Source of the DNA: a virus
Reading direction: 5' to 3' (one strand)
Virus record (IMG/VR): IMGVR_UViG_3300047551_003156
Location: 1-26,352 of that record
DNA length: 26,352 nt
Position numbers and translations under genes: made by a program. The notes beneath the pieces were generated by a model. That model did no database searches and was not told where the DNA came from. It worked only from the letters and a program-made list of their open reading frames with translations. Shown here one piece after another: positions 5,490 through 25,325 of the stretch. How positions within the stretch are numbered: position 1 is the first letter of the stretch; the number at the start of each line of letters is the position of its first letter.

Positions 5490-6443
5490 TTACGAGTTTG
5501 CGCCGATGCTCGACGACGACTCAACGCGGCGCAGTGACGCCTCGCGGAATCGGCCGTAGCCACCCAGCCAGTACCAACCAATCGGCTGGAAGCGGAAGAG
5601 GGTGTCGGTGATCGGACCACGCACCACGCGGGGGAACGGTCCGTTGCCGTCGACGACTGAGTGCGCCTTGGCCAAAGCCTGGCGACCCATGATCAGCGTG
5701 GCGTAGACGTCCACGGTGGAGCTTGCGCCCTCGTCCGTGAAGATCTTGCCGCGCGGCGTCTCGATGAAACGCACGCCTTCGAACGCGCCGATCTCGCCCA
5801 TGTAGATGTTGGCGGGATCGCTGTACACGTGCGGGTCACGCCACGAGGCGACGCCCGTCTCACGACGGAGGTCGTACGACACGTCCGGGTGGATGTAGCC
5901 CATGTACATGCCGCCGAACGACACGGCGTTCGCCTTGCGGAGAGCGGCGACGACCTTGCGGACGTCGTTCGCTTCGATGACGTCTTCGGCCTGCACCGTG
6001 GCGCGGCTCGACGGATCGGTTGCACCGCCGCCACCGTAGATCACGTTGGTGCCAGCCGAGATGACGTCGCGCACGACGCTGTCGATCGAGATACCGGCGT
6101 TGTAGCCGACGACGTTCGCCGCAGCAGCGTCGACGTCGAGGAACGACGTACCACGCAGCTTGGCAGTCGTCGAGACTGCGTTACCGTACTCGGTCAACGT
6201 GACGGTCACTTGGCTGTCGCTCATTGCGACGGCGGTGACGTCTGACGTTTCGGTCAGGGGCGTGTCAGCCACAGCAAGATCGTTGAAGATCGTGAACGTG
6301 ACTGCCGAACCCGGCATTGCTTGAGCGACCGGCATGACGTCGGCGACCGCGTCGAACAGAAGTTCGCTGCGGAGCGCGAAGTACGCAATCCGGTCAAATG
6401 CTGTCTGGTCTGTTGACAGACTCGACATTTGTGTATAGGCCAT
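5490..6443 (-). CDS. Major capsid protein, 317 aa
   Basis: The 317-aa product lies directly after the scaffold gene, ends in the hairpin terminator and has the make-up of an HK97-fold coat protein. It has an N-terminal arm (MAYTQMSSLSTDQTAFDR), a strand-rich P-domain-like region (VTFTIFNDLAVADTPLTE, VTVTLTEYGNAVSTTAKL), a long helix (VIEANDVRKVVAALRKANA), YMGYIHPDVSYDLRRETGV and a C-terminal section with WYWLGGYGRF. The YIHPDVSYDLR area is characteristic of the N4-gp56 family of major capsid proteins. A hairpin precedes the gene at 6469-6483. The ribosome site is weak (CAGGTAACAGG before the ATG). Assignment rests on order plus remembered family pattern; length is usual for the family. Confidence 0.85.
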   Translation of the reverse strand: MAYTQMSSLSTDQTAFDRIAYFALRSELLFDAVADVMPVAQAMPGSAVTFTIFNDLAVADTPLTETSDVTAVAMSDSQVTVTLTEYGNAVSTTAKLRGTSFLDVDAAAANVVGYNAGISIDSVVRDVISAGTNVIYGGGGATDPSSRATVQAEDVIEANDVRKVVAALRKANAVSFGGMYMGYIHPDVSYDLRRETGVASWRDPHVYSDPANIYMGEIGAFEGVRFIETPRGKIFTDEGASSTVDVYATLIMGRQALAKAHSVVDGNGPFPRVVRGPITDTLFRFQPIGWYWLGGYGRFREASLRRVESSSSIGANS

Positions 6444-15686: not shown

Positions 15687-17435
15687 TCACCCCAGTTGAC
15701 CAAGTAGTGCCTCTAATGAAGGTTCTCCGCCGGCGACACCGGCTTCTGCGCCCATACCCGGGGCAGCAAGACCAGGCATCGTCTCCGGCGATCCAGGTGC
15801 CATCATCGCCGCCTGCCTGTCGCGTGCGCGCTGATCGGTTCGTGACACGGCTTCGTACAGCGACACGTCGTTCTCCATGACCAGACGAACCAGATACGCC
15901 ATGTCGTCCGGCTGGTACGGGCCAGCTGGGTTGACTGCTTGCTGTTGAATGCTGGCAAGCAACGCTGCCTCTACGCCTTCGGAGATGATCCGGTCGTGTT
16001 CCAGTTCCGGATCCGCAATCAGCGGGTCTGCTTCGCGTGCCGACTCCTTGCTCATCATGCCGACACCCAGACGTTGGCCGAGTCCGATGATCAGCGAGTT
16101 GACGTCCGAACCGGCAGCCGAGTAGCTGACGTAGTGGAAATCTGTTTCCCAGATCTTGTTCGGCACGTACGACTCTTGTCCGGTGCTGACGCGGGACGGG
16201 ATGAAGAAGGTCTTCGGGAAGTCACCCCAGTATGCGCGCTCAACGGCGATCGCAATCTTGTCTTCTTCCACGAGCGAGTGCTCGAACAGCGACTGTGCTT
16301 CTTGTACGCGGTAGTCGACGGTTGCCGACAACACGTTTTCTCCGCGACGACCGGTGCGGATGTTCGATGCTGATTCGCCGCCGAACTCCGCCGGGATCGC
16401 GCCTTCGAGACGTTCTTGTCGTTCGAGACGATCGAGTGCGGTGTCGGTTTTGTAACCGGGGTTCAACTGCAACTGCTGGATGTCGCCGCCTTTGACCACG
16501 CCCAAGATGCCGGACTTGCCGTCGGCGATCTGGAGGATCTCGGGGTTCTCGCCCGGGCGCGCGACAAGGTATTCCTCGGGGAAGATGCCGCGTTCAATGG
16601 CGATTTCGGTGAGGGCCTGGAGTCGTGCGCGCGTGTAGTACATGCCGAGCACGCCGTCAAACTGGCCGCGCGGTTTGTCCAGGTTGATGCGGTTGCACAC
16701 CACGGCAAGCGGACGACCCGTACGGTTGGGGATTGCTTCGAGCATGATTGCTTCCAGGCCCGCGCGTTCAGCAACGCTGAGTTCCGGATTGTCTTCTGCT
16801 CCGAGCACCACAAGTTGGATTGATTCGGCGTCGGTGTATTCCAGCATCGTGTAGCGGGAGTCGCTGTTGATTTGACCAAAGCGAAGTTGTCCGCCAACCA
16901 GGTCGCCGTAGTTGCGCAGCAGCCACTGTGCGCTGGCTTTGTAGGTGAAGATGCAGTTGTCCGGGACCATCGTGTCGGGATCGTCGACTGGGGCAGCAAA
17001 TGTGTCGAGCGGATTGCGCACCACCCACTGCGGATTCAGCGTGCGGAAGTTGGGGCGGATCATGACGCCGGACTGCGCGTAAGCCAACAGGTGGCGTGCG
17101 CGTCGACGCATCTTCATTTTCATCTTGTTCTCGTCCCAGATGGACAGCATTGCTTTGCGCCTAATGCGTGCGTAGCTCTTGGAACGTTCTGATCCTTCTT
17201 TTGACGGCGGGAAGTATGGCGATGGCATGGTCGAAGCAATGCGCATTGACATCTGTTCAAGGCCTTGTACCAGCAGGTTTGCGACGTTGGTTTTGGCGTT
17301 CTTGTCAAGTTCGTTCAACGGGACGACGACGTCACCGTTGGCCAAGTCACGCACGCGTCGCATCTGGTCGTGGATCGGACCAGCCGCCAGACGGCGGTTG
17401 TGGTAAAGCTCTACGATTTCTTCGGTTGACAGCAT
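15687..17435 (-). CDS. Portal protein, 582 aa
   Basis: The ATG overlaps the stop of the 1006-aa gene (TGATG). The N-terminus LSTEEIVELYHNRRLAAGP, the early basic helical region (YARIRRKAMLSIWDENKMK) and the central strand-rich part (SGVMIRPNFRTLNPQWVVR, NPLDTFAAPVDDPD) fit the stem, wing and clip organisation of portal proteins. A long helical region (LEGAIPAEFGGESASNIRTG, LSATVDYRVQEAQSLFEHS) resembles the crown-side helices. The length (582) is usual. The portal forms the dodecameric ring through which DNA is packaged and ejected. Position shortly after the terminase supports the assignment. The C-terminal 60 residues are Met/Pro/Gly/Ala-rich and probably disordered. Confidence 0.82.
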   Translation of the reverse strand: MLSTEEIVELYHNRRLAAGPIHDQMRRVRDLANGDVVVPLNELDKNAKTNVANLLVQGLEQMSMRIASTMPSPYFPPSKEGSERSKSYARIRRKAMLSIWDENKMKMKMRRRARHLLAYAQSGVMIRPNFRTLNPQWVVRNPLDTFAAPVDDPDTMVPDNCIFTYKASAQWLLRNYGDLVGGQLRFGQINSDSRYTMLEYTDAESIQLVVLGAEDNPELSVAERAGLEAIMLEAIPNRTGRPLAVVCNRINLDKPRGQFDGVLGMYYTRARLQALTEIAIERGIFPEEYLVARPGENPEILQIADGKSGILGVVKGGDIQQLQLNPGYKTDTALDRLERQERLEGAIPAEFGGESASNIRTGRRGENVLSATVDYRVQEAQSLFEHSLVEEDKIAIAVERAYWGDFPKTFFIPSRVSTGQESYVPNKIWETDFHYVSYSAAGSDVNSLIIGLGQRLGVGMMSKESAREADPLIADPELEHDRIISEGVEAALLASIQQQAVNPAGPYQPDDMAYLVRLVMENDVSLYEAVSRTDQRARDRQAAMMAPGSPETMPGLAAPGMGAEAGVAGGEPSLEALLGQLG

Positions 17436-20400
17436 CAGCTTTTCCTCGTTGTTGACTTGATTAGACGTACAAGATCTTTCTTGGTGAACTCAGTTGACTT
17501 CATCAAGGTCTTGAATTGCGCAGGATCCATACCTTCACCGACGGGGCGTGTAAACACACCACGTACGCCGCGATCCCTGCTGAAACGAGTCGGTGCACCA
17601 GTGCTGACCTGCAGTTTAAATCCTGCCTGTTCGACGGCAAGCAACTGTTCGTAGTCCATCGTTTTTGGATTCATCTCGAAGAATTCTACGCCTTTGGGCC
17701 GCTCTGGTGCAGGGGCTGAGACCGGTACGTCTGGTGTGACGTCGGCGTAATCAACTCGACCACGGCGACCTGGCAACGGCGTGACATCCAGCTGTTGGTT
17801 GACGACGTTGTAGATGTCAGCCGGGTCTGGTGACTGCAATCTCTTCAGAGAACGTTCGTTGACGCTCATGCTGTGCAGCGGCTGCGAGACATCCTTTGGA
17901 TACGTGCGCGCGCGTGCGGCACGCTCCATGCGACGCAAACGGGCACGCACTTCGCCGTAACGGCCGCGAACACCTATTCCGGTCTTGCCCAACTTGCGTT
18001 CACCAACCGCTTGTTCTTGTTCGCGTTTGCGAGCTTTGGACTCAAGTTGCGCTTTACGCGCTTCTTTTCGTGCCTGTTTGACTTGTTCTTCGGGAAGTTG
18101 ACGCGCCACGGATTCACGTGTAAGTTGCTGTCTTTCCTCAAATTTTTCTTGACCGCCCTTTGGTTTGGCTGCAACGTTCTTGCGCGATCGCGCTTTCTTC
18201 AAAAGTTCTTTGTTGCTTGCCGCAATTTCCTGTGCGCTACGTGTATCGGCAATTGGTGCGCCGGTTCTTTCGTTGAAAGTTCCCTGTTTGGATATGCGCT
18301 CTACACGTTCCGCGCGCGACTCGCCTGGTGTTTTTCTACGTTGACGCAAGTTCCTTCTGCCGCGAGTCACGCCCTGCATGACCTTGGCTTCTGCCGCAGC
18401 CATCTGATCCAACTGTTTGCGAACTTGGCCAAGGTAAGTGTTCGGGTATTGCTCCTGGCCTTCGCGGTTGACCGTGGACTCTCTGCGGATTTGTTCCATT
18501 TTGGCTTTGCCTTCGGCCGTAGTCGGAACGCCTTCGACATCGAATTCGATCTTGACTTCGCTCTTCTTGACGGGGGTGACCGGTTGATCAAACTCAAGTT
18601 TTGGTCCGCCAAGGCTCGGGCTTTTTTGTGCGCGAGGATTCTCTGGGCCAAGAACGCCGCGACGACGCAACTGTTTGGCGCTCTTTTGCTCCATCAGTTT
18701 TGCTTCCGACACGTAAATCGTGCGCTGTGCCGGCAAGCCCGTCTTCGGGTTGATCACCGGCGCACCAGTCTCCGGATTGACGACGTACTCGACGCGCTCA
18801 ATCGGGGCTTCACGCAGCACCTTCAAGTTCTCGGCAGACATCTTTGTCTGCTTAGCTTCTTCAAGCTGTGCTTTTGTGAACTTTTGCTTGGGAGCTTTCT
18901 TTTTACTTGTCGAACTCGACGGTAACTTTTGCTCGCTTGGACTTGGTTTTGACGGGTCCACGCTTGGGCTGCTTGCGGGCGGGGTTACCTCTGAGGTTTG
19001 GGTTTTCTGAAACGGGGTAGGTTTCGAACTCGAATCGACCACTTTCTCCGTAACGTTCGATGAGCTCGGCGTCTGTGAGCTCGTCGATTGTTTTCTCTTT
19101 CGTGGTGCTTTTGGGGCAGCGCCACCAACCACCTCCCCCTGGGCTGGCGTGCCCTTGGCGGGTTCCACTTTGGGAGCGTCATCAAATTCAATCTTGACGT
19201 CCGTGCTGGTCTTCGTGGTTTTTGCTTTCTTCGATCCCTTTGTTTTGGTCACCGGCTTGGTTGCAGCAGTTGCTGGTGCTTGTTCGACCTTGGTTGCCGG
19301 AGCAGTGAACTGTTCGGGTGTGACGGTCTTCTGGAACTCGGTCGGAGGTGTTTGGCCTTCGACTTTGACCGGATTCGACGGAGCCACTTCCGGTGCCTTG
19401 GTCGGGCTGGAAGATGTCTGCGGTTTGTCAAGAACGACGCGATCCAAAGCCTTTTCGACTTTGGCATTCTTCGACGCATTCTTTCCTGGCTGCACTTTTC
19501 TCGGAACACCACGCAACTTCGACTGCGTGGCTGGTGCGGTTTCGGTGGTTGCTTGACGAACTGCCGGTTCGCTGGCAACGACTCGTTCAGTGGTGGAAGC
19601 AACGGGGGTGGTTTCGTTGATCGGCGTTGTCTTGCCGCCCTTGAACTTGGTGCGCGCATAGTTGGTGGCGGCTTGTCCCACGCCACCAAAAATTTCTTGG
19701 TCGGCAGAACGCACAAGATTGCCGACTCCTTTGATTTTGCCAATTCTGCTAACGCCACGTCCAACAAGACTGGCGCCTTTCTTCAAAAAGAATTTTCCAG
19801 CACCAACATCAAGTGCGCCGATTGTGACGTCACGCGCAGCTTCAGCAAGATTCTTGACGCCTTCCATCTTTTGACCCTGCTTGAAAGCGGTTACTGCTTC
19901 GTCAAGGTTTTGTGAAGCTGGCCGAACCATTCGCAAGCCAGGAATGCCAGGGCCAAAACCAATCGTTTGGCTATACCCAGGAATGTTTACATCAGCAGCC
20001 CAGTCAACGAACTTCGACGGCTGGTATGGTTTGCCTGGTTCTGACCATTGTCCGCGCCTGACGTTTGCTTTTGACTGTGCTTGCGTCTGTGTGGTGGTCG
20101 TACGTTGGGTTGAAGTTACCGGTCGTGGCGACGTGTACCCGCCGAGCGACGGAGAACCGATGCGACCTGCCGGAGAAGAAACAGACGGGATCTCCGGAAT
20201 CGAAGTGCTCGACTTGTTGGTCGGCAGGTTCTGGCGGACGCGTTGACGCAACGCTTTGCGACGCTCTTGCGGCGCATCAGGCAGGATGGTCCTGGCAATC
20301 TTGCCGCGACCCTCGACGCTTGCAGCAAGGACATCAAAACGGTTGGCCAGTCGTTGACGCTGGTCGACGGACAGTTCGTCCCAACCTTTGTCCTCTGCGC

Positions 20401-20455
20401 GCTCCTCAATGAAGCGTTGTTTGATACGACCGTAAGGGTCTTTCTTTTGAGCCAT
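17435..20455 (-). CDS. Large low-complexity basic protein, 1006 aa
   Basis: A 1006-aa protein between terminase and portal. Residues 1-60 form a charged helical module resembling the N-terminus of the 179-aa protein encoded at 23417-23956. Residues about 185-260 contain a Gly/Ala/Lys amphipathic stretch (GAGKFFLKKGASLVGRGVS). Residues about 275-530 are Pro/Thr/Ser/Lys-rich and presumably disordered. Residues 530-850 are highly basic helices. The motif K-(I/L)-E-F-D occurs at 421, 619 and 635, and SPSLGG at 101 and 612. The C-terminal 100 residues look folded (TMDYEQLLAVEQAGFKLQV). There is no enzyme motif. Such a protein in the packaging cluster may be a DNA-binding or capsid-interior protein; function unknown. 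The ribosome site is weak (GGG, 7 nt before ATG). Confidence 0.75.
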   Translation of the reverse strand: MAQKKDPYGRIKQRFIEERAEDKGWDELSVDQRQRLANRFDVLAASVEGRGKIARTILPDAPQERRKALRQRVRQNLPTNKSSTSIPEIPSVSSPAGRIGSPSLGGYTSPRPVTSTQRTTTTQTQAQSKANVRRGQWSEPGKPYQPSKFVDWAADVNIPGYSQTIGFGPGIPGLRMVRPASQNLDEAVTAFKQGQKMEGVKNLAEAARDVTIGALDVGAGKFFLKKGASLVGRGVSRIGKIKGVGNLVRSADQEIFGGVGQAATNYARTKFKGGKTTPINETTPVASTTERVVASEPAVRQATTETAPATQSKLRGVPRKVQPGKNASKNAKVEKALDRVVLDKPQTSSSPTKAPEVAPSNPVKVEGQTPPTEFQKTVTPEQFTAPATKVEQAPATAATKPVTKTKGSKKAKTTKTSTDVKIEFDDAPKVEPAKGTPAQGEVVGGAAPKAPRKRKQSTSSQTPSSSNVTEKVVDSSSKPTPFQKTQTSEVTPPASSPSVDPSKPSPSEQKLPSSSTSKKKAPKQKFTKAQLEEAKQTKMSAENLKVLREAPIERVEYVVNPETGAPVINPKTGLPAQRTIYVSEAKLMEQKSAKQLRRRGVLGPENPRAQKSPSLGGPKLEFDQPVTPVKKSEVKIEFDVEGVPTTAEGKAKMEQIRRESTVNREGQEQYPNTYLGQVRKQLDQMAAAEAKVMQGVTRGRRNLRQRRKTPGESRAERVERISKQGTFNERTGAPIADTRSAQEIAASNKELLKKARSRKNVAAKPKGGQEKFEERQQLTRESVARQLPEEQVKQARKEARKAQLESKARKREQEQAVGERKLGKTGIGVRGRYGEVRARLRRMERAARARTYPKDVSQPLHSMSVNERSLKRLQSPDPADIYNVVNQQLDVTPLPGRRGRVDYADVTPDVPVSAPAPERPKGVEFFEMNPKTMDYEQLLAVEQAGFKLQVSTGAPTRFSRDRGVRGVFTRPVGEGMDPAQFKTLMKSTEFTKKDLVRLIKSTTRKS

Positions 20456-20473: not shown

Positions 20474-20479
20474 ATACTA
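20474..20479 (-). promoter_or_regulatory. Possible -10 box ahead of the 1006-aa gene
   Basis: TAGTAT on the minus strand overlaps the terminase stop codon and lies 18 nt before the ATG. A start 6 nt downstream would leave a 12-nt leader. There is no -35 match, so support is weak. Confidence 0.3.
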
Positions 20480-22426
20480 AATCCAGGACGGACGCCACAA
20501 TTTCGGCGGAGCCTTGAACGGTGACAGTCCCGGCATGTGAAGCTCGGCGAACCAGTGGGCCATGACCAGGTCGGTGCCGTTCTTTTTGTCGCGGGTCCAG
20601 GTTGACATTTCGTCCACGAAAGCCAGCGTCTTCCAGTTGTCGCGCATGGTCGGAAGCCGTACGGAGCCGGCGCGCCACAGCGGAGGCAGCAAGGCTTCGA
20701 CGCCCAGGTCGTCGTCGAGTTTGTTGCGGTTGGTGGTGTGCGGGATGATCATCGTCTGGTGTAGTGCCTGCCACTTGCGGATGAAGTCATGCGCTAAAAG
20801 GAAGCGTTGCGCTGCGTTGATTTCCACGACCCAATGGCTGATCGGGTAGCCGAGATCCCAAGATCGGTTCTGCCACTCTTCCATCAAGCCGTAGTGTGTG
20901 CGGTTGGCGGTGTCATAGCCGAGCAGTTCTTCTGCGGTCAGCTTGACGCGTTCCATGTCGATCAGGTAGCGCAAGTTGGTCTTGGGTTGGTACAGCCACC
21001 ATTGCACGGCCCAGAACATGGTCGGGCTCGGGTCGACGGTAGCGATCGAAATAATGGGGGGTTCAAGGTTTGGTGGCACGTAGCCGGGGCGTCGATCCTG
21101 GTCGATGCATCCCGGGTAGAGCACGCCGTCGTTGCCCATGCCTCCGGTGGCCCACACGCGTTCGATCAGGTAGTAGCCCTGTTGGACGTCTTCTTGCTGG
21201 TAGACGGTGGAGAACTTGACCGGCGAGTTGTGGCGGATGTAGGACAAATCTTTCCACGACAACCTGAACGGCTCCAGTAGCGGGCCGCTGGGCCAGGCTG
21301 GTGCGGTCGTGCGACGCGACTCGGGTCCCTGGTCCAAGTCCTCGTAGTACGCCTTGTAGACGATGTGGTCGTACTTCCAACGTTTGACCGGTTCCTTGCT
21401 TTCTGTTTCGGTTACGTCTTCGCCGTCGTAGTCGTCGGGGTCTTCTTCGTACGTCACTTTTGACAGGCAGTGTGCGTAGAGATCTTGGGGTCCGAGCCGC
21501 TGGCCGATGACCGCCAGCACGCCGCCAGGCTCGACACGGGCTTCAGCCATCGAGTCCCATCGTTCGATCAACTTGTCGCGGGCCACCGACTCTTTGGAGT
21601 TCTCCGGTGACGCGACGTCGTCAAACAAGCACAGGTCGGCGCGGTGTCCGATGAACTCCGATTCAATACCGTACGCCGACACGGTCGGCTCCTTGTTGTC
21701 CAATCCGCCCGAGCCGTACTGTTCGACGATGAACTCTTCAGCACGCCACAACGCACCCACGTTCGTCGGCTTGAACCTGCCGTAGTCCAACGACAAGCAG
21801 GCTTCGGCGTTGATCGCCAGACCGCGACGCACCATCTCCGGGTCCGGTTGCAGCGGCTGGGTGCGCTCCAGGGTTTCGCGGATACGACGCGAGTACATCT
21901 TGGCCAGCGTCTGAGAAATCGACCCGATCATCACGCGGATCGCGCGGTTGCGCACGATGCACCACACCGCCACGTCGTGGAACAAAGTCGACTTGCCGGC
22001 ACCCGGAGGACAGTTCAACACAAGGAATTCTTTGTCGTTGGATTCCAGTTTGCTGACGATCTTGTAGGCGGCATCGACCTGCCATGGGCTGGGCACGCGG
22101 CCCAGGTAGCGCATGCGGAAATAGTCGAAGTCTTCAAGGGCGCGCGCAGCTTCTTTGCTTAGACGTGTGGGTGGGATGACCGGAGGCAAGTCTTTGTTGA
22201 CGACCAGGTCGCGTTTCAATGCGTTGCCGCCGCTGGCTTTGCCGAACTCCAGATTCTGTTTATCAAGTTCCGCCGACGTAGCTTTGGCTTTGGCCACCCA
22301 CTTGGTAGCACTGGAGTAGGAAATGCCTGCCATCCTGGCGGCTTCTTTCATGTTGATGCCGGACGACATCGCCTGCCAGAACATGGCGCGGTCTTCTGGT
22401 GTGATCGGCCTGTTGCCTTTTGCCAT
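20477..22426 (-). CDS. terL: Terminase large subunit with N-terminal HTH
   Basis: A 649-aa packaging motor. Residues 8-50 form a helix-turn-helix (ITPEDRAMFWQAMSSGINMK followed by EAARMAGISYSSATKWV), normally found in the small subunit. The ATPase domain has Walker A CPPGAGKST (139-147) and Walker B LCLFDD (265-270). The nuclease domain has ISIATVDPSPTMFW (Asp465), VVEINAAQ (Glu535) and GTDLVMAHW (Asp619), giving a plausible acidic triad. The protein cuts concatemeric DNA and drives it through the portal. No separate small terminase gene is visible in the window. There is no Shine-Dalgarno before the ATG; two overlapping TAGCAT boxes lie just upstream. Confidence 0.92.
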   Translation of the reverse strand: MAKGNRPITPEDRAMFWQAMSSGINMKEAARMAGISYSSATKWVAKAKATSAELDKQNLEFGKASGGNALKRDLVVNKDLPPVIPPTRLSKEAARALEDFDYFRMRYLGRVPSPWQVDAAYKIVSKLESNDKEFLVLNCPPGAGKSTLFHDVAVWCIVRNRAIRVMIGSISQTLAKMYSRRIRETLERTQPLQPDPEMVRRGLAINAEACLSLDYGRFKPTNVGALWRAEEFIVEQYGSGGLDNKEPTVSAYGIESEFIGHRADLCLFDDVASPENSKESVARDKLIERWDSMAEARVEPGGVLAVIGQRLGPQDLYAHCLSKVTYEEDPDDYDGEDVTETESKEPVKRWKYDHIVYKAYYEDLDQGPESRRTTAPAWPSGPLLEPFRLSWKDLSYIRHNSPVKFSTVYQQEDVQQGYYLIERVWATGGMGNDGVLYPGCIDQDRRPGYVPPNLEPPIISIATVDPSPTMFWAVQWWLYQPKTNLRYLIDMERVKLTAEELLGYDTANRTHYGLMEEWQNRSWDLGYPISHWVVEINAAQRFLLAHDFIRKWQALHQTMIIPHTTNRNKLDDDLGVEALLPPLWRAGSVRLPTMRDNWKTLAFVDEMSTWTRDKKNGTDLVMAHWFAELHMPGLSPFKAPPKLWRPSWI

Positions 22427-22505: not shown

Positions 22506-23417
22506 TTACTTTTTCTTTTTGTCGTAAGTCGTGTAATTCGACGGCTTGCGTTTGTCGGCAAGTTTTTTGTACTGGTCTTTCCAGTAGTTGATGTCTGCGG
22601 GCATCAACTTAGCTCCGTAGTTTTGGGATCGTTGATCGTAACTCATCAACGTATTCGGATTGTTTTCGATGGGTTCAGGGTGTCCAAAGCCGAGCGTATG
22701 GCCGAATTCGTGCTGGGTAACGTGGGCTCGGAATTGCGGATCCTGCATGTAGGAATTGAATTTGTTTTGTGCCGCCGTATTCACTTTGAGATCTTTGATG
22801 TGGGGACGACGATCCCTCGCGTCAGCAGGGTGAAAGGGTGATCGGTAAGCAGAGCCAGCATAGGGCAAATCGCTCATGTCGGCTTCGCCCTTGATGTTTA
22901 ACTGCAAAGTTCTGTCTGCGTTCGTGACAGGTTCGTACCTGTCTTCTTTCAAAGGTATCGGCATGACCTGGAAATTTTTACCGAAGTACACCGAATTTGC
23001 TCTGGCGAATTCTTTCAACCCGGCATCAATGGCCATCATCCTGTTCATGTGGTACTCGCGCCTGTCCATTGCGCCTTGGGTCAAATACTCGACTTTGTAC
23101 TGGGGGTTGATCAAAACGGTGTCAATGTCTTTCAAAAACGTTTCCGCGCTCGAATACTCAGGGTCAGGCAAGTAGTCATCGCCGTAAACGGCGCGTTGCC
23201 CTTTGGTGTTGTAGTCGTCACGATAACCGGCGTTTTGGTACGGCATGACGTTGATTGGTTGCGGCTCCGGATAATTCGGCACACCCCACGGCCCGAATGT
23301 CGTTTGATCCTTGGGAATCTTTTCGATTCGATCCGGCGGCAAACGATCGTTGCCGCGCACTCCGCGAGTGCCGCCAAAGTACCCTCCGTAGTTGGCGCGA
23401 GGATCTTTGCGGGGCAT
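22506..23417 (-). CDS. Metzincin-type zinc metalloprotease, 303 aa
   Basis: The ATG overlaps the previous stop (TGATG). Residues 236-246 are HEFGHTLGFGH, an exact metzincin site HExxHxxGxxH: His236, His240 and His246 bind zinc and Glu237 is the general base. A Met-turn follows in TLMSY (Met258), 12 residues after the third His, as in matrixins and relatives. Upstream, AGSAYRSPFHPADARD and HIKDLKVNT resemble the strand region before the active-site helix of matrixin-like domains. The protein has no signal peptide, membrane segment or cysteine, so no cysteine switch and no sign of secretion. The N-terminus is Gly/Arg-rich (RANYGGYFGGTRGVRGNDR) and the C-terminus Lys-rich. Its place beside the terminase suggests a virion or maturation role; substrate unknown. 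Confidence 0.88.
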   Translation of the reverse strand: MPRKDPRANYGGYFGGTRGVRGNDRLPPDRIEKIPKDQTTFGPWGVPNYPEPQPINVMPYQNAGYRDDYNTKGQRAVYGDDYLPDPEYSSAETFLKDIDTVLINPQYKVEYLTQGAMDRREYHMNRMMAIDAGLKEFARANSVYFGKNFQVMPIPLKEDRYEPVTNADRTLQLNIKGEADMSDLPYAGSAYRSPFHPADARDRRPHIKDLKVNTAAQNKFNSYMQDPQFRAHVTQHEFGHTLGFGHPEPIENNPNTLMSYDQRSQNYGAKLMPADINYWKDQYKKLADKRKPSNYTTYDKKKK

Positions 23418-23956
23418 CAATCCCAGAATTTCAAGTTACGGCTCAACCAGTTCTTGATGTCTTTACCGGTCGGACCGCGACTGGCCCAACCCGGAGCATC
23501 AGCATTCAACTCGTTGTAGTTCTGCACCATGTTCAAACGCTGCTGACGTGCACTAGCCGGCATACCGAACTGATTCAACGGACCACCCCAGGCAGGATTC
23601 TCTGCCACCATATTGCCCAACGCAACCTGCTTCTCAACAGCCGACACAGGAGCAACATACGGAGAACCAGGCAGCACCGTGCTGTTCGGACGATCAGCCG
23701 GAGTCAAACCATACGAAGGAGTCACCTTCTTGCTACCGGTCGACTTACCCTTCTGAGACGTGGCAAGAATCTTGCGAATACCGGCAATGTTCGTGACCGA
23801 AGCAATTTGCTGACGGCCCTCTTTGGTTTGCGACAACGACTCAAACTTGGCGCGGAACTTCGCCTTTGACTCCGCATCCGACCTACCTGTCTTTGCCACA
23901 CGCTGCTGCACGAACGCACGACGGGCTGCGGCAACCGGATCGTTCTTCTTGGCCAT
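23417..23956 (-). CDS. Basic helical protein with shared N-terminal module, 179 aa
   Basis: I take the ATG at 23956 (MAKKNDPVAAARRAFVQQR); an in-frame upstream start at 23998 would run back through the end of the neighbouring gene. The start is 4 nt after that gene's stop, so translation is probably coupled. Residues 1-65 are basic helices resembling the first 60 residues of the 1006-aa protein: MA-x-K-(K/N)-DP opening, an R-x-F-x-x-(Q/E)-R motif, R-x-(R)F, then EGR followed by IA. The middle (80-120) is Pro/Ser/Val-rich and the C-terminus helical with conserved-looking WASRGPTGKDIKNWLSRNL. No family is recognised. The shared module suggests the two proteins dock on the same partner. Confidence 0.7.
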   Translation of the reverse strand: MAKKNDPVAAARRAFVQQRVAKTGRSDAESKAKFRAKFESLSQTKEGRQQIASVTNIAGIRKILATSQKGKSTGSKKVTPSYGLTPADRPNSTVLPGSPYVAPVSAVEKQVALGNMVAENPAWGGPLNQFGMPASARQQRLNMVQNYNELNADAPGWASRGPTGKDIKNWLSRNLKFWD

Positions 23957-23960
23957 GACC

Positions 23961-24278
23961 CTACTGTACTCCAGCAGCGTCACCGCCACCAGCACCACGC
24001 TTCTTCTTCGGCTTCACCGGATACGGAACATACACTGTCTTGCCTGGAAGCTGCACCACGCGAATCTTTTCACGAGGACGTTTAATCGGATCCGGAAAAT
24101 CGTACTTCCCGGGACCGTACGCTCCGCGAATGTCGGGACGCATCGCACCAGCAAACGACAAAGCGTTACCCGGATCGTTACGACCCGACAACCCGTCAAT
24201 CAAACCGTACGACCCGCCACCAGCATCCAACGTCGACATGTCACTCGACTTCTTCTTGGACGACTTCTTGGCCGGCAT
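23961..24278 (-). CDS. Basic protein at head of packaging operon, 105 aa
   Basis: The ATG at 24278 is preferred: TACGAT lies exactly 6 nt upstream, consistent with a leaderless transcript starting at the ATG. A TTG at 24305 in the same frame would place that box inside the gene. The protein opens with a Lys/Ser cluster (PAKKSSKKKSSDMSTLDAG), is Gly/Asp/Pro-rich in the middle (GLIDGLSGRNDPGNALSF) and ends with a basic strand region (REKIRVVQLPGKTVYVPYP) and a Lys/Gly tail. No known family is recognised. It is the first gene after the long gap, so it probably starts the structural transcription unit. Confidence 0.65.
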   Translation of the reverse strand: MPAKKSSKKKSSDMSTLDAGGGSYGLIDGLSGRNDPGNALSFAGAMRPDIRGAYGPGKYDFPDPIKRPREKIRVVQLPGKTVYVPYPVKPKKKRGAGGGDAAGVQ

Positions 24279-24648
24279 GACAAAATCGTAGCACGAGGTT
24301 GCCAACCGGAAAAACAGGTGCTAAGGTGTCCCCCACAACACCCGAAGAATCCGATACCCTAAACGGTTACATTCCTCCGCGCACTTCAACTACGCGGGCA
24401 GCATGGCTAGACCGCACGGGATTAGTGGCCTGAAAAGGGGACCGGTGGTGTTCGTCTCTTTCGGTATCAAGACAGACGGGTTCAGACGCAAAACAGAACT
24501 TGGGGGGCTAAGAAGCACCGCTCAGTAGCAGTAGCACAAAGACACAAGCATCTGAGCTACCCCTACATTTACGTAGCTGGAGAGGACGGGTAATTGCGGC
24601 GGCATGGGGGCGGTGGCTCGGCAGACCCCCAGATGCGTCAGGGGCGAA
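24279..24648. other. 370-nt region without a supported gene
   Basis: Neither strand has an open frame with a ribosome site. A plus-strand frame of 41 codons (24403-24528) lacks a Shine-Dalgarno and would run against all other genes. Small inverted repeats are present (CCGCG with CGCGG near 24378-24398; AGCTAC with GTAGCT near 24553-24580; TGGGGG with CCCCCA near 24605-24632). It lies between the strong terminator at its right and the first gene of the packaging operon at its left, so it may hold regulatory, origin or packaging sites. Confidence 0.5.
24285..24290 (-). promoter_or_regulatory. Leaderless-type -10 box (TACGAT)
   Basis: TACGAT fits TANNNT and ends exactly 6 nt before the ATG of the 105-aa gene. 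In actinobacteria a -10 box in this place starts transcription at the A of the start codon. No good -35 is present and no Shine-Dalgarno precedes the ATG. Confidence 0.5.
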
Positions 24649-24693
24649 AAGAGAAAAAAAAAGGGGCGCAGGTGCGTGAGCACCTGCGCCCCT
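24649..24693 (-). terminator. Strong intrinsic terminator after the 117-aa gene
   Basis: On the minus strand AGGGGCGCAGGTGC pairs without mismatch with GCACCTGCGCCCCT (14 bp) around a 4-nt loop, and is followed by an uninterrupted run of T. This is the strongest terminator in the window and closes the 117-aa gene's transcription unit. Confidence 0.92.
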
Positions 24694-25235: not shown

Positions 25236-25285
25236 AGACGAAAAAGGGGCGCAGTCCACAGGTTTCCCTGCGAACCACGCCCCTT
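25236..25285 (-). terminator. Intrinsic terminator after the 49-aa gene
   Basis: On the minus strand AAGGGGCG pairs with CGCCCCTT (8 bp); inside it CAGG-GAAA-CCTG forms a second small stem capped by a GNRA tetraloop. TTTTTCGTCTTTC follows. It lies 40 nt after the stop of the 49-aa gene and closes the right-hand unit. Confidence 0.75.
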
Positions 25286-25325
25286 CTCGCTGGTTACCGT
25301 GCTGATTGCTGCCTACACACAAGCA

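What the first reader, a model, noticed from the sequence alone, without database searches (positions are those of the whole stretch)
22506..23417. Cysteine-free metzincin protease encoded in a phage packaging cluster
The protein carries a complete HExxHxxGxxH site (236-246) and a Met-turn (258), as in matrixins. Phage prohead proteases known to me are serine-type (S14, S49, U35/S78), not zinc metzincins, and no such gene is visible in this window although a scaffold gene is. The protein lacks signal peptide and cysteines, so it is not a typical secreted, cysteine-switch enzyme. It may process virion proteins, degrade the scaffold, or travel in the virion and act on host surface or cytoplasmic proteins.
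Basis: partly seen in the sequence, partly recalled or inferred. Interest (0 to 1): 0.65.

Follow-up and report, generated by a model that had tools for sequence, protein, structure and literature searches.

The report
Phage metzincin in swappable effector slot
A virus of (probably freshwater, probably actinobacterial) bacteria carries a zinc-protease-like gene in a spot beside its DNA-packaging motor where related viruses swap in other enzyme genes, many resembling ADP-ribosylating enzymes, which suggests an interchangeable tool used against the host rather than a part for building the virus.

Summary
In detail: window 22506-23417(-) encodes a 303-aa, cysteine-free protein with HEFGHTLGFGH (236-246) and NTLMSY (Met258). 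Three full-length homologues (32-33% identical by BLAST) in related phage contigs keep every His and the Glu, but have Thr at the Met-turn position. One homologue pair has dN/dS about 0.18.

The interpretation shifts. It is not a conserved morphogenesis protease. Among 36 related contigs plus the window with a complete interval between a conserved leader and terL, only four carry it. Others carry nothing, ADP-ribosyltransferase-fold proteins, or unknown proteins in the same place. Two homologues are 89% identical in DNA although their terL genes are only 70% identical, so the gene moves as a cassette. Several cargo families, including the other three metzincins, share an N-terminal tag (NPIxDIxxTVGxWLGG). 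Thirty-six slot proteins hold no cysteine in 9,419 residues and have pI 9-11.5.

Best reading: an accessory effector protease at a polymorphic cargo locus, probably packed in the virion and injected, as T4 Alt and internal proteins are. Delivery, substrate and activity are inferred. The AlphaFold model failed (pLDDT 39), so the metzincin fold rests on motifs.

Side find: a covarying structured RNA upstream of the slot, without an Rfam match.

The parts
24350..24514 (-). Conserved structured leader upstream of the variable slot (about 165 nt)
   Evidence: nhmmer E 1.8e-45 in the window and in 58 other (partly overlapping) loci just upstream of the slot; 23 tested pairs 99.2% paired, covariation score 0.360 against at most 0.078 for slid controls; no Rfam match
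23961..24278 (-). Slot gene 1, 105 aa, pI 10.1, no cysteine, Lys-rich, unknown function
   Evidence: sequence; no PHROG
23417..23956 (-). Slot gene 2, 179 aa, pI 10.5, no cysteine; begins with N-terminal 'tag B' shared with the 1006-aa protein
   Evidence: tag B HMM built from other contigs hits it at E 2.3e-16
22506..23417 (-). Slot gene 3: metzincin-like protease, 303 aa, no cysteine, pI 9.0
22680..22712 (-). Zinc-binding/catalytic motif HEFGHTLGFGH (residues 236-246)
   Evidence: invariant H236 E237 H240 G243 H246 in four homologues
22638..22655 (-). Met-turn NTLMSY (residues 255-260); Met258 is Thr in the three homologues
20477..22426 (-). Terminase large subunit, 649 aa, right border of the slot
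   Evidence: phrog_38 E 9.2e-62
17435..20455 (-). 1006-aa, pI 10.3, cysteine-free protein in a second variable slot between terL and portal; starts with tag B
   Evidence: tag B E 6.6e-22; the equivalent position is empty or holds other tag-B-like proteins in relatives; annotated endolysin in Streptomyces phage FlowerPower
15687..17435 (-). Portal protein
   Evidence: phrog_104 E 7.2e-14
5490..6443 (-). Major head protein (Phage_capsid_3), 317 aa
   Evidence: PF13252 E 1.1e-47, phrog_1357 E 1.6e-82

Best explanation
The gene is one alternative cargo in a polymorphic locus that lies between a conserved structured leader and terL in a clade of podovirus-like phages. Its product is an accessory zinc endoprotease of metzincin type, made late together with the packaging proteins, most likely taken into the head through its N-terminal region, ejected with the DNA, and cutting a host protein (for example a defence or regulatory protein) at the start of infection. 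Shown: the motif and its conservation, purifying selection in a homologue pair, the patchy distribution, cassette-like exchange, sibling cargos with an ADP-ribosyltransferase fold, tags shared by different cargos, and the lack of cysteine and high pI. Inferred: zinc binding, proteolysis, packaging, injection and any substrate.
For: All His/Glu/Gly motif residues invariant in four homologues at about 34% identity; dN 0.066, dS 0.368 for L016/L082. Only 4 of 37 contigs with a complete leader-terL interval have it; the interval runs from 49 nt (empty) to 1,646 nt in relatives and about 1,860 nt here. L016 and L082 protease genes are 89% identical in DNA but their terL 70%; L066 and L082 terL are 91% identical in protein but the proteases 64%. 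Tag 'MARK-NPIxDIxxTVGxWLGG' is shared by three of the metzincins, ART-fold proteins and other families, beside terL wherever terL is on the same locus. Sibling cargo model (pLDDT 79, pTM 0.77): best Foldseek hits are Arr ADP-ribosyltransferases (prob 0.98-0.99), and the structural re-alignment rows are nearly all ART-fold enzymes, led by Rhs toxin TreX and Arr-2. 0 Cys in 9,419 aa of 36 slot proteins against 0.98% in terL; pI 9-11.5. Published precedents: phage ARTs encoded near terminase/portal are predicted to be head-packaged (PMC9503650); T4 internal proteins are targeted by a 10-residue N-terminal sequence, and Alt is injected (PMC9026906, PMC9503650); zincin peptidases and ARTs are the commonest protein-targeting domains of polyvalent proteins, many of them predicted to be virion-packaged (PMC5512222).
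Against: No virion proteomics is at hand for these phages; packaging is by analogy. The window protein itself lacks a detectable tag A; only GG.RG remains. The fold could not be modelled (pLDDT 38.6). Pfam M10 is below its cut-off. The Met-turn Met is Thr in the three relatives. A basic, cysteine-free protein could equally be a DNA-associated structural protein, and several non-slot genes of this phage also lack cysteine.
Confidence: 0.5

Rival explanations
1. Late intracellular effector that is not packaged: an accessory protease acting in the producing cell, for example against a late-acting host defence, against superinfecting phage, or to aid lysis.
For: Same accessory, swappable distribution; encoded in the late packaging cluster; polymorphic anti-defence genes also sit in variable slots (general knowledge); the phage-derived Listeria metzincin Mtz acts with Tim to sensitise cells to lysins (PMC8235301).
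Against: Shared N-terminal tags on unrelated C-terminal domains, absence of cysteine and basic charge suggest a common destination; no signal peptide, unlike Mtz.
Confidence: 0.25
2. Morphogenesis protease that degrades the scaffold or trims capsid/tail proteins.
For: Position beside terL; no serine prohead protease found in the window.
Against: Absent from about 90% of close relatives that have the same terL neighbourhood; moves independently of terL; Phage_capsid_3-type head protein with a separate small scaffold-like gene.
Confidence: 0.06
3. Pseudo-enzyme or structural internal protein: the zinc motif is a relic and the protein serves as a basic, DNA-associated virion component.
For: Met-turn Met replaced by Thr in three homologues; basic and Lys-rich tail; siblings of unknown function in the slot.
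Against: HExxHxxGxxH fully invariant although the sequence as a whole is about 34% identical; dN/dS about 0.18.
Confidence: 0.1
4. Self-processing module: the protease cuts its own N-terminal region or neighbouring tagged cargos after entry or packaging, as proposed for zincin domains of polyvalent proteins.
For: PMC5512222 proposes this for zincin domains; the window has two tag-B proteins next to or near it.
Against: Most relatives with the same tags have no protease; single-domain protein.
Confidence: 0.09

Closest known systems
Serralysins/matrixins (MEROPS M10) and other metzincins
   Same: HExxHxxGxxH and, in the window protein, a Met-turn at the usual distance; PDB profile hits are almost all metzincins; PF00413 is the best Pfam family.
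   Different: Below the Pfam cut-off; no secretion signal, cysteine switch or recognisable C-terminal repeats; Thr instead of Met in the turn of three homologues; encoded in a phage packaging cluster.
T4 internal proteins and Alt (CTS-targeted, injected head proteins)
   Same: Basic, variable proteins sharing a short N-terminal segment with divergent remainder; ART-type enzyme among them; accessory.
   Different: Virion location not shown; no prohead protease found in the window to remove the tag; podovirus-like phage; tag sequence unrelated.
Polyvalent proteins of phages (Iyer et al. 2017, PMC5512222)
   Same: Same domain repertoire (zinc peptidase, ART) next to virion/packaging genes.
   Different: Here single small proteins exchanged at one slot, not multidomain giants; polyvalent MPTases use a Glu as third ligand, this one a His.
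Listeria phage-derived metzincin Mtz with Tim (PMC8235301)
   Same: Phage-associated HExxHxxGxxH/D plus Met-turn protease; accessory gene.
   Different: Mtz has a Sec signal and is secreted with a TIMP-like partner, located after holin-lysin; ours has no signal and no such partner was seen.

Membership tests
Metzincin clan | HExxHxxGxxH/D zinc site | tested here: met
   HEFGHTLGFGH 236-246; invariant in four homologues
Metzincin clan | Met-turn | tested here: met
   NTLMSY, Met258 in the window protein; but NT[IV]TSY in the three homologues, so not a constant of this family
Metzincin clan | Metzincin fold with the three His in a zinc site | tested here: inconclusive
   AlphaFold2 with four sequences: pLDDT 38.6, pTM 0.31; fold search meaningless. 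Order of predicted elements (strand 100-106, helix 117-145, strands 148-151, 170-176, 187-193, helix 273-289) is compatible only
Matrixin PF00413 (M10) | Score over the curated cut-off | tested here: not met
   16.7 bits against 24
Metzincin clan | Zn-dependent endoproteolysis | not testable with these tools
   needs purified protein
Prohead protease | Conserved with the head genes of the clade | tested here: not met
   4 of 37 complete leader-terL intervals
T4-type internal/injected proteins | Common N-terminal targeting segment on different proteins | tested here: inconclusive
   Tag A shared by three metzincins, ARTs and others, but not detected in the window protein
T4-type internal/injected proteins | Present in the virion and injected | not testable with these tools
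   needs virion proteomics
Polyvalent proteins | Two or more effector domains in one polypeptide | tested here: not met
   303 aa, single recognisable domain
ADP-ribosyltransferase fold (sibling cargo, not the protease) | ART fold | tested here: met
   Foldseek Arr prob 0.98-0.99, E 4e-3 to 6e-3, TM about 0.45; structural rows nearly all ART-fold, Z 5-7, so probable rather than certain; sequence profile search found nothing

The most novel reading that the evidence does not exclude
A two-slot, polymorphic effector-loading system in small podovirus-like phages: short N-terminal tags (A and B) direct exchangeable enzymes, including a metzincin and Arr-like ADP-ribosyltransferases, into the virion for injection, with a structured leader RNA marking the cassette border.
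Probability: 0.4. Interest if true: 0.78.

Novelty: new variant of a known kind. Interest (0 to 1): 0.6.

Why it matters
If true, a group of environmental phages common in metagenomes carries a compact, interchangeable arsenal at a defined genomic address, with short tags that could be the packaging signals. This makes a general question, how small phages choose and load proteins for injection, directly testable, and gives a genomic marker (leader RNA + tag + terL) for finding further effectors, among them proteases aimed at host proteins, of which few are known in phages.

Tried and rejected
AlphaFold of the protease with its three homologues failed (pLDDT 38.6), and the fold search with it gave only prolyl-tRNA synthetases at E 0.06 or worse, which I disregard. 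No relative of the protease in annotated phages, PHROGs or, with the patterns used, 84,980 bacterial/archaeal genomes; terL also found no genome relative, so host assignment by prophage failed. A single-sequence scan of IMG/VR found nothing; alignment and terL scans found three homologues. A motif scan for QHEFxHxxxGxxxH-type sites gave two contigs that did not join the family. Pfam/PHROGs gave no confident name to sibling cargos; a ParB-like reading of the L063 cargo and a large methylase-like ORF upstream of terL in L040/L043/L080 are by eye only. Prohead protease, secreted matrixin and polyvalent protein were considered and set aside for the reasons in the membership table.

Full report
Observation. 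The ORF at 22506-23417 on the minus strand is real: 303 aa from ATG, its start overlapping the stop of the previous gene. HEFGHTLGFGH at 236-246 and NTLMSY at 255-260 are as reported, there is no cysteine and no hydrophobic segment. Two of 200,000 shuffles of its composition contain the motif, and in six-frame translations of 80 related contigs the full motif occurs only in homologues.

Family. A single-sequence search of the viral collection found nothing and annotated phages have no relative. Fetching 80 contigs with a related terL and searching their ORFs revealed two full-length homologues, L016 and L066; an alignment search added L082, and 80 loci around the L082 terL added no more. All four keep H236, E237, H240, G243 and H246 at about 34% identity. 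The Met of the Met-turn is Thr in the three relatives. Weak profile matches point to metzincins: PF00413 at 16.7 bits against a cut-off of 24, and a PDB list (E 0.06 to 2) dominated by serralysins, myroilysin and MMPs. The structure prediction with four sequences is unusable, so the fold is inferred from motifs.

Locus. In this phage clade the stretch between a conserved leader and terL is variable. The leader was recognised because L016, L066 and L082 share about 180 nt upstream of the slot; a profile finds it at E 1.8e-45 in the window, 24514-24283 minus, and in 58 other loci, several of them copies of one contig. After merging duplicate contigs by hand, 36 contigs plus the window have a complete interval. 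Its length is 49-1,646 nt in relatives and about 1,860 nt here: about nine contigs have essentially nothing, seven an ART-like cargo, three (plus the window) the metzincin, and the rest other, mostly basic, proteins of unknown function.

Exchange. L016 and L082 protease genes are 89% identical in DNA, while their terL genes are 70% identical; L066 and L082 terL proteins are 91% identical, their proteases 64%. The high-identity block between L016 and L082 ends with the gene. This is cassette exchange, and a capsid-maturation enzyme would not be expected to behave so. dN/dS between L016 and L082 is about 0.18, so the protein is maintained.

Siblings. Proteins in the slot share N-terminal segments while their remainders differ. 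Tag A (MARK-x-NPIxDIxxTVGxWLGG) occurs on three metzincins, on ART-like proteins and on other families, and where terL is on the same locus the gene lies beside it. The commonest C-terminal domain (VHGS..GL..I.P...) was modelled with 17 sequences at pLDDT 79 and pTM 0.77; Foldseek ranks Arr rifampin ADP-ribosyltransferases first (prob 0.98-0.99), and structural re-alignment gives almost only ART-fold enzymes, led by the Rhs toxin TreX, Arr-2 and Tpt1. Z is 5-7, so the fold is likely, the reaction unproven. The window protein itself has no detectable tag A, but its upstream neighbour (179 aa) and the 1006-aa protein after terL both start with tag B at E 2.3e-16 and 6.6e-22, from a model built on other contigs only. 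The place between terL and portal is a second variable slot.

Composition. Thirty-six slot proteins contain no cysteine in 9,419 residues, with pI 9.0-11.5, against 0.98% cysteine in terL; the 1739-aa protein, head protein and other putative virion proteins of the window also lack cysteine. This fits a virion destination but does not prove it.

Mechanism. Literature gives the analogy: phage ARTs encoded beside terminase and portal are predicted to be head-packaged (PMC9503650); T4 internal proteins are targeted by a short N-terminal sequence, and Alt, an ART, is injected (PMC9026906 and PMC9503650); zincin peptidases and ARTs are common domains of polyvalent proteins, many predicted to be packaged (PMC5512222). 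I therefore favour an injected accessory protease (0.5), with an unpackaged late effector as main rival (0.25). Morphogenesis (0.06) is unlikely given distribution and mobility.

Phage. terL, portal, a very large protein and a major head protein occur in the order of Streptomyces phage FlowerPower, Beephvirinae. An actinobacterial host is plausible but not shown; genome scans found no relative. The freshwater origin is also an inference.

Novelty. The library searched holds no paper that joins matrixin, phage and terminase, and the one phage-origin metzincin found, Listeria Mtz, is secreted and paired with a TIMP-like protein (PMC8235301). I rate this a new variant of a known kind: phage cargo effectors.

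Noticed in passing
24350-24514 (-), and L016:8135-8300, L082:527-690, L066:286-450: Conserved leader of about 165 nt upstream of the variable slot, with strong compensatory base changes (10 pairs with two-sided changes, 77 cells, 99.2% paired; slid controls at most 3 pairs). No Rfam family at either threshold tried. Possibly a packaging RNA or regulatory leader near the genome end.
   Followed up: partly
17435-20455 (-): Second variable slot between terL and portal: 1006-aa basic, cysteine-free protein with tag B; relatives have unrelated proteins of 230-1565 aa with similar N-termini, or none.
   Followed up: partly
L098:3821-4258, L059:9498-9980, L094:912-1424 and others: Family of ART-fold proteins (VHGS motif) beside terL, undetected by Pfam, PHROGs and PDB sequence profiles but matching Arr by fold.
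   Followed up: yes
L063:246-884: Slot protein whose C-terminal part looks ParB/Srx-like by eye (VIIGRVNGKKTLMEGNHRV); Pfam gives only DUF7329 at E 0.026.
   Followed up: no
L040, L043, L080 upstream of terL: Large DNA-methylase-like ORF (DPPY and DPFTGSGSTG motifs) ends 2 nt from terL in some relatives.
   Followed up: no
24662-24693 and 25243-25286 (-): Two strong terminator-like hairpins upstream of the leader, suggesting the slot and packaging genes form their own transcription unit.
   Followed up: no
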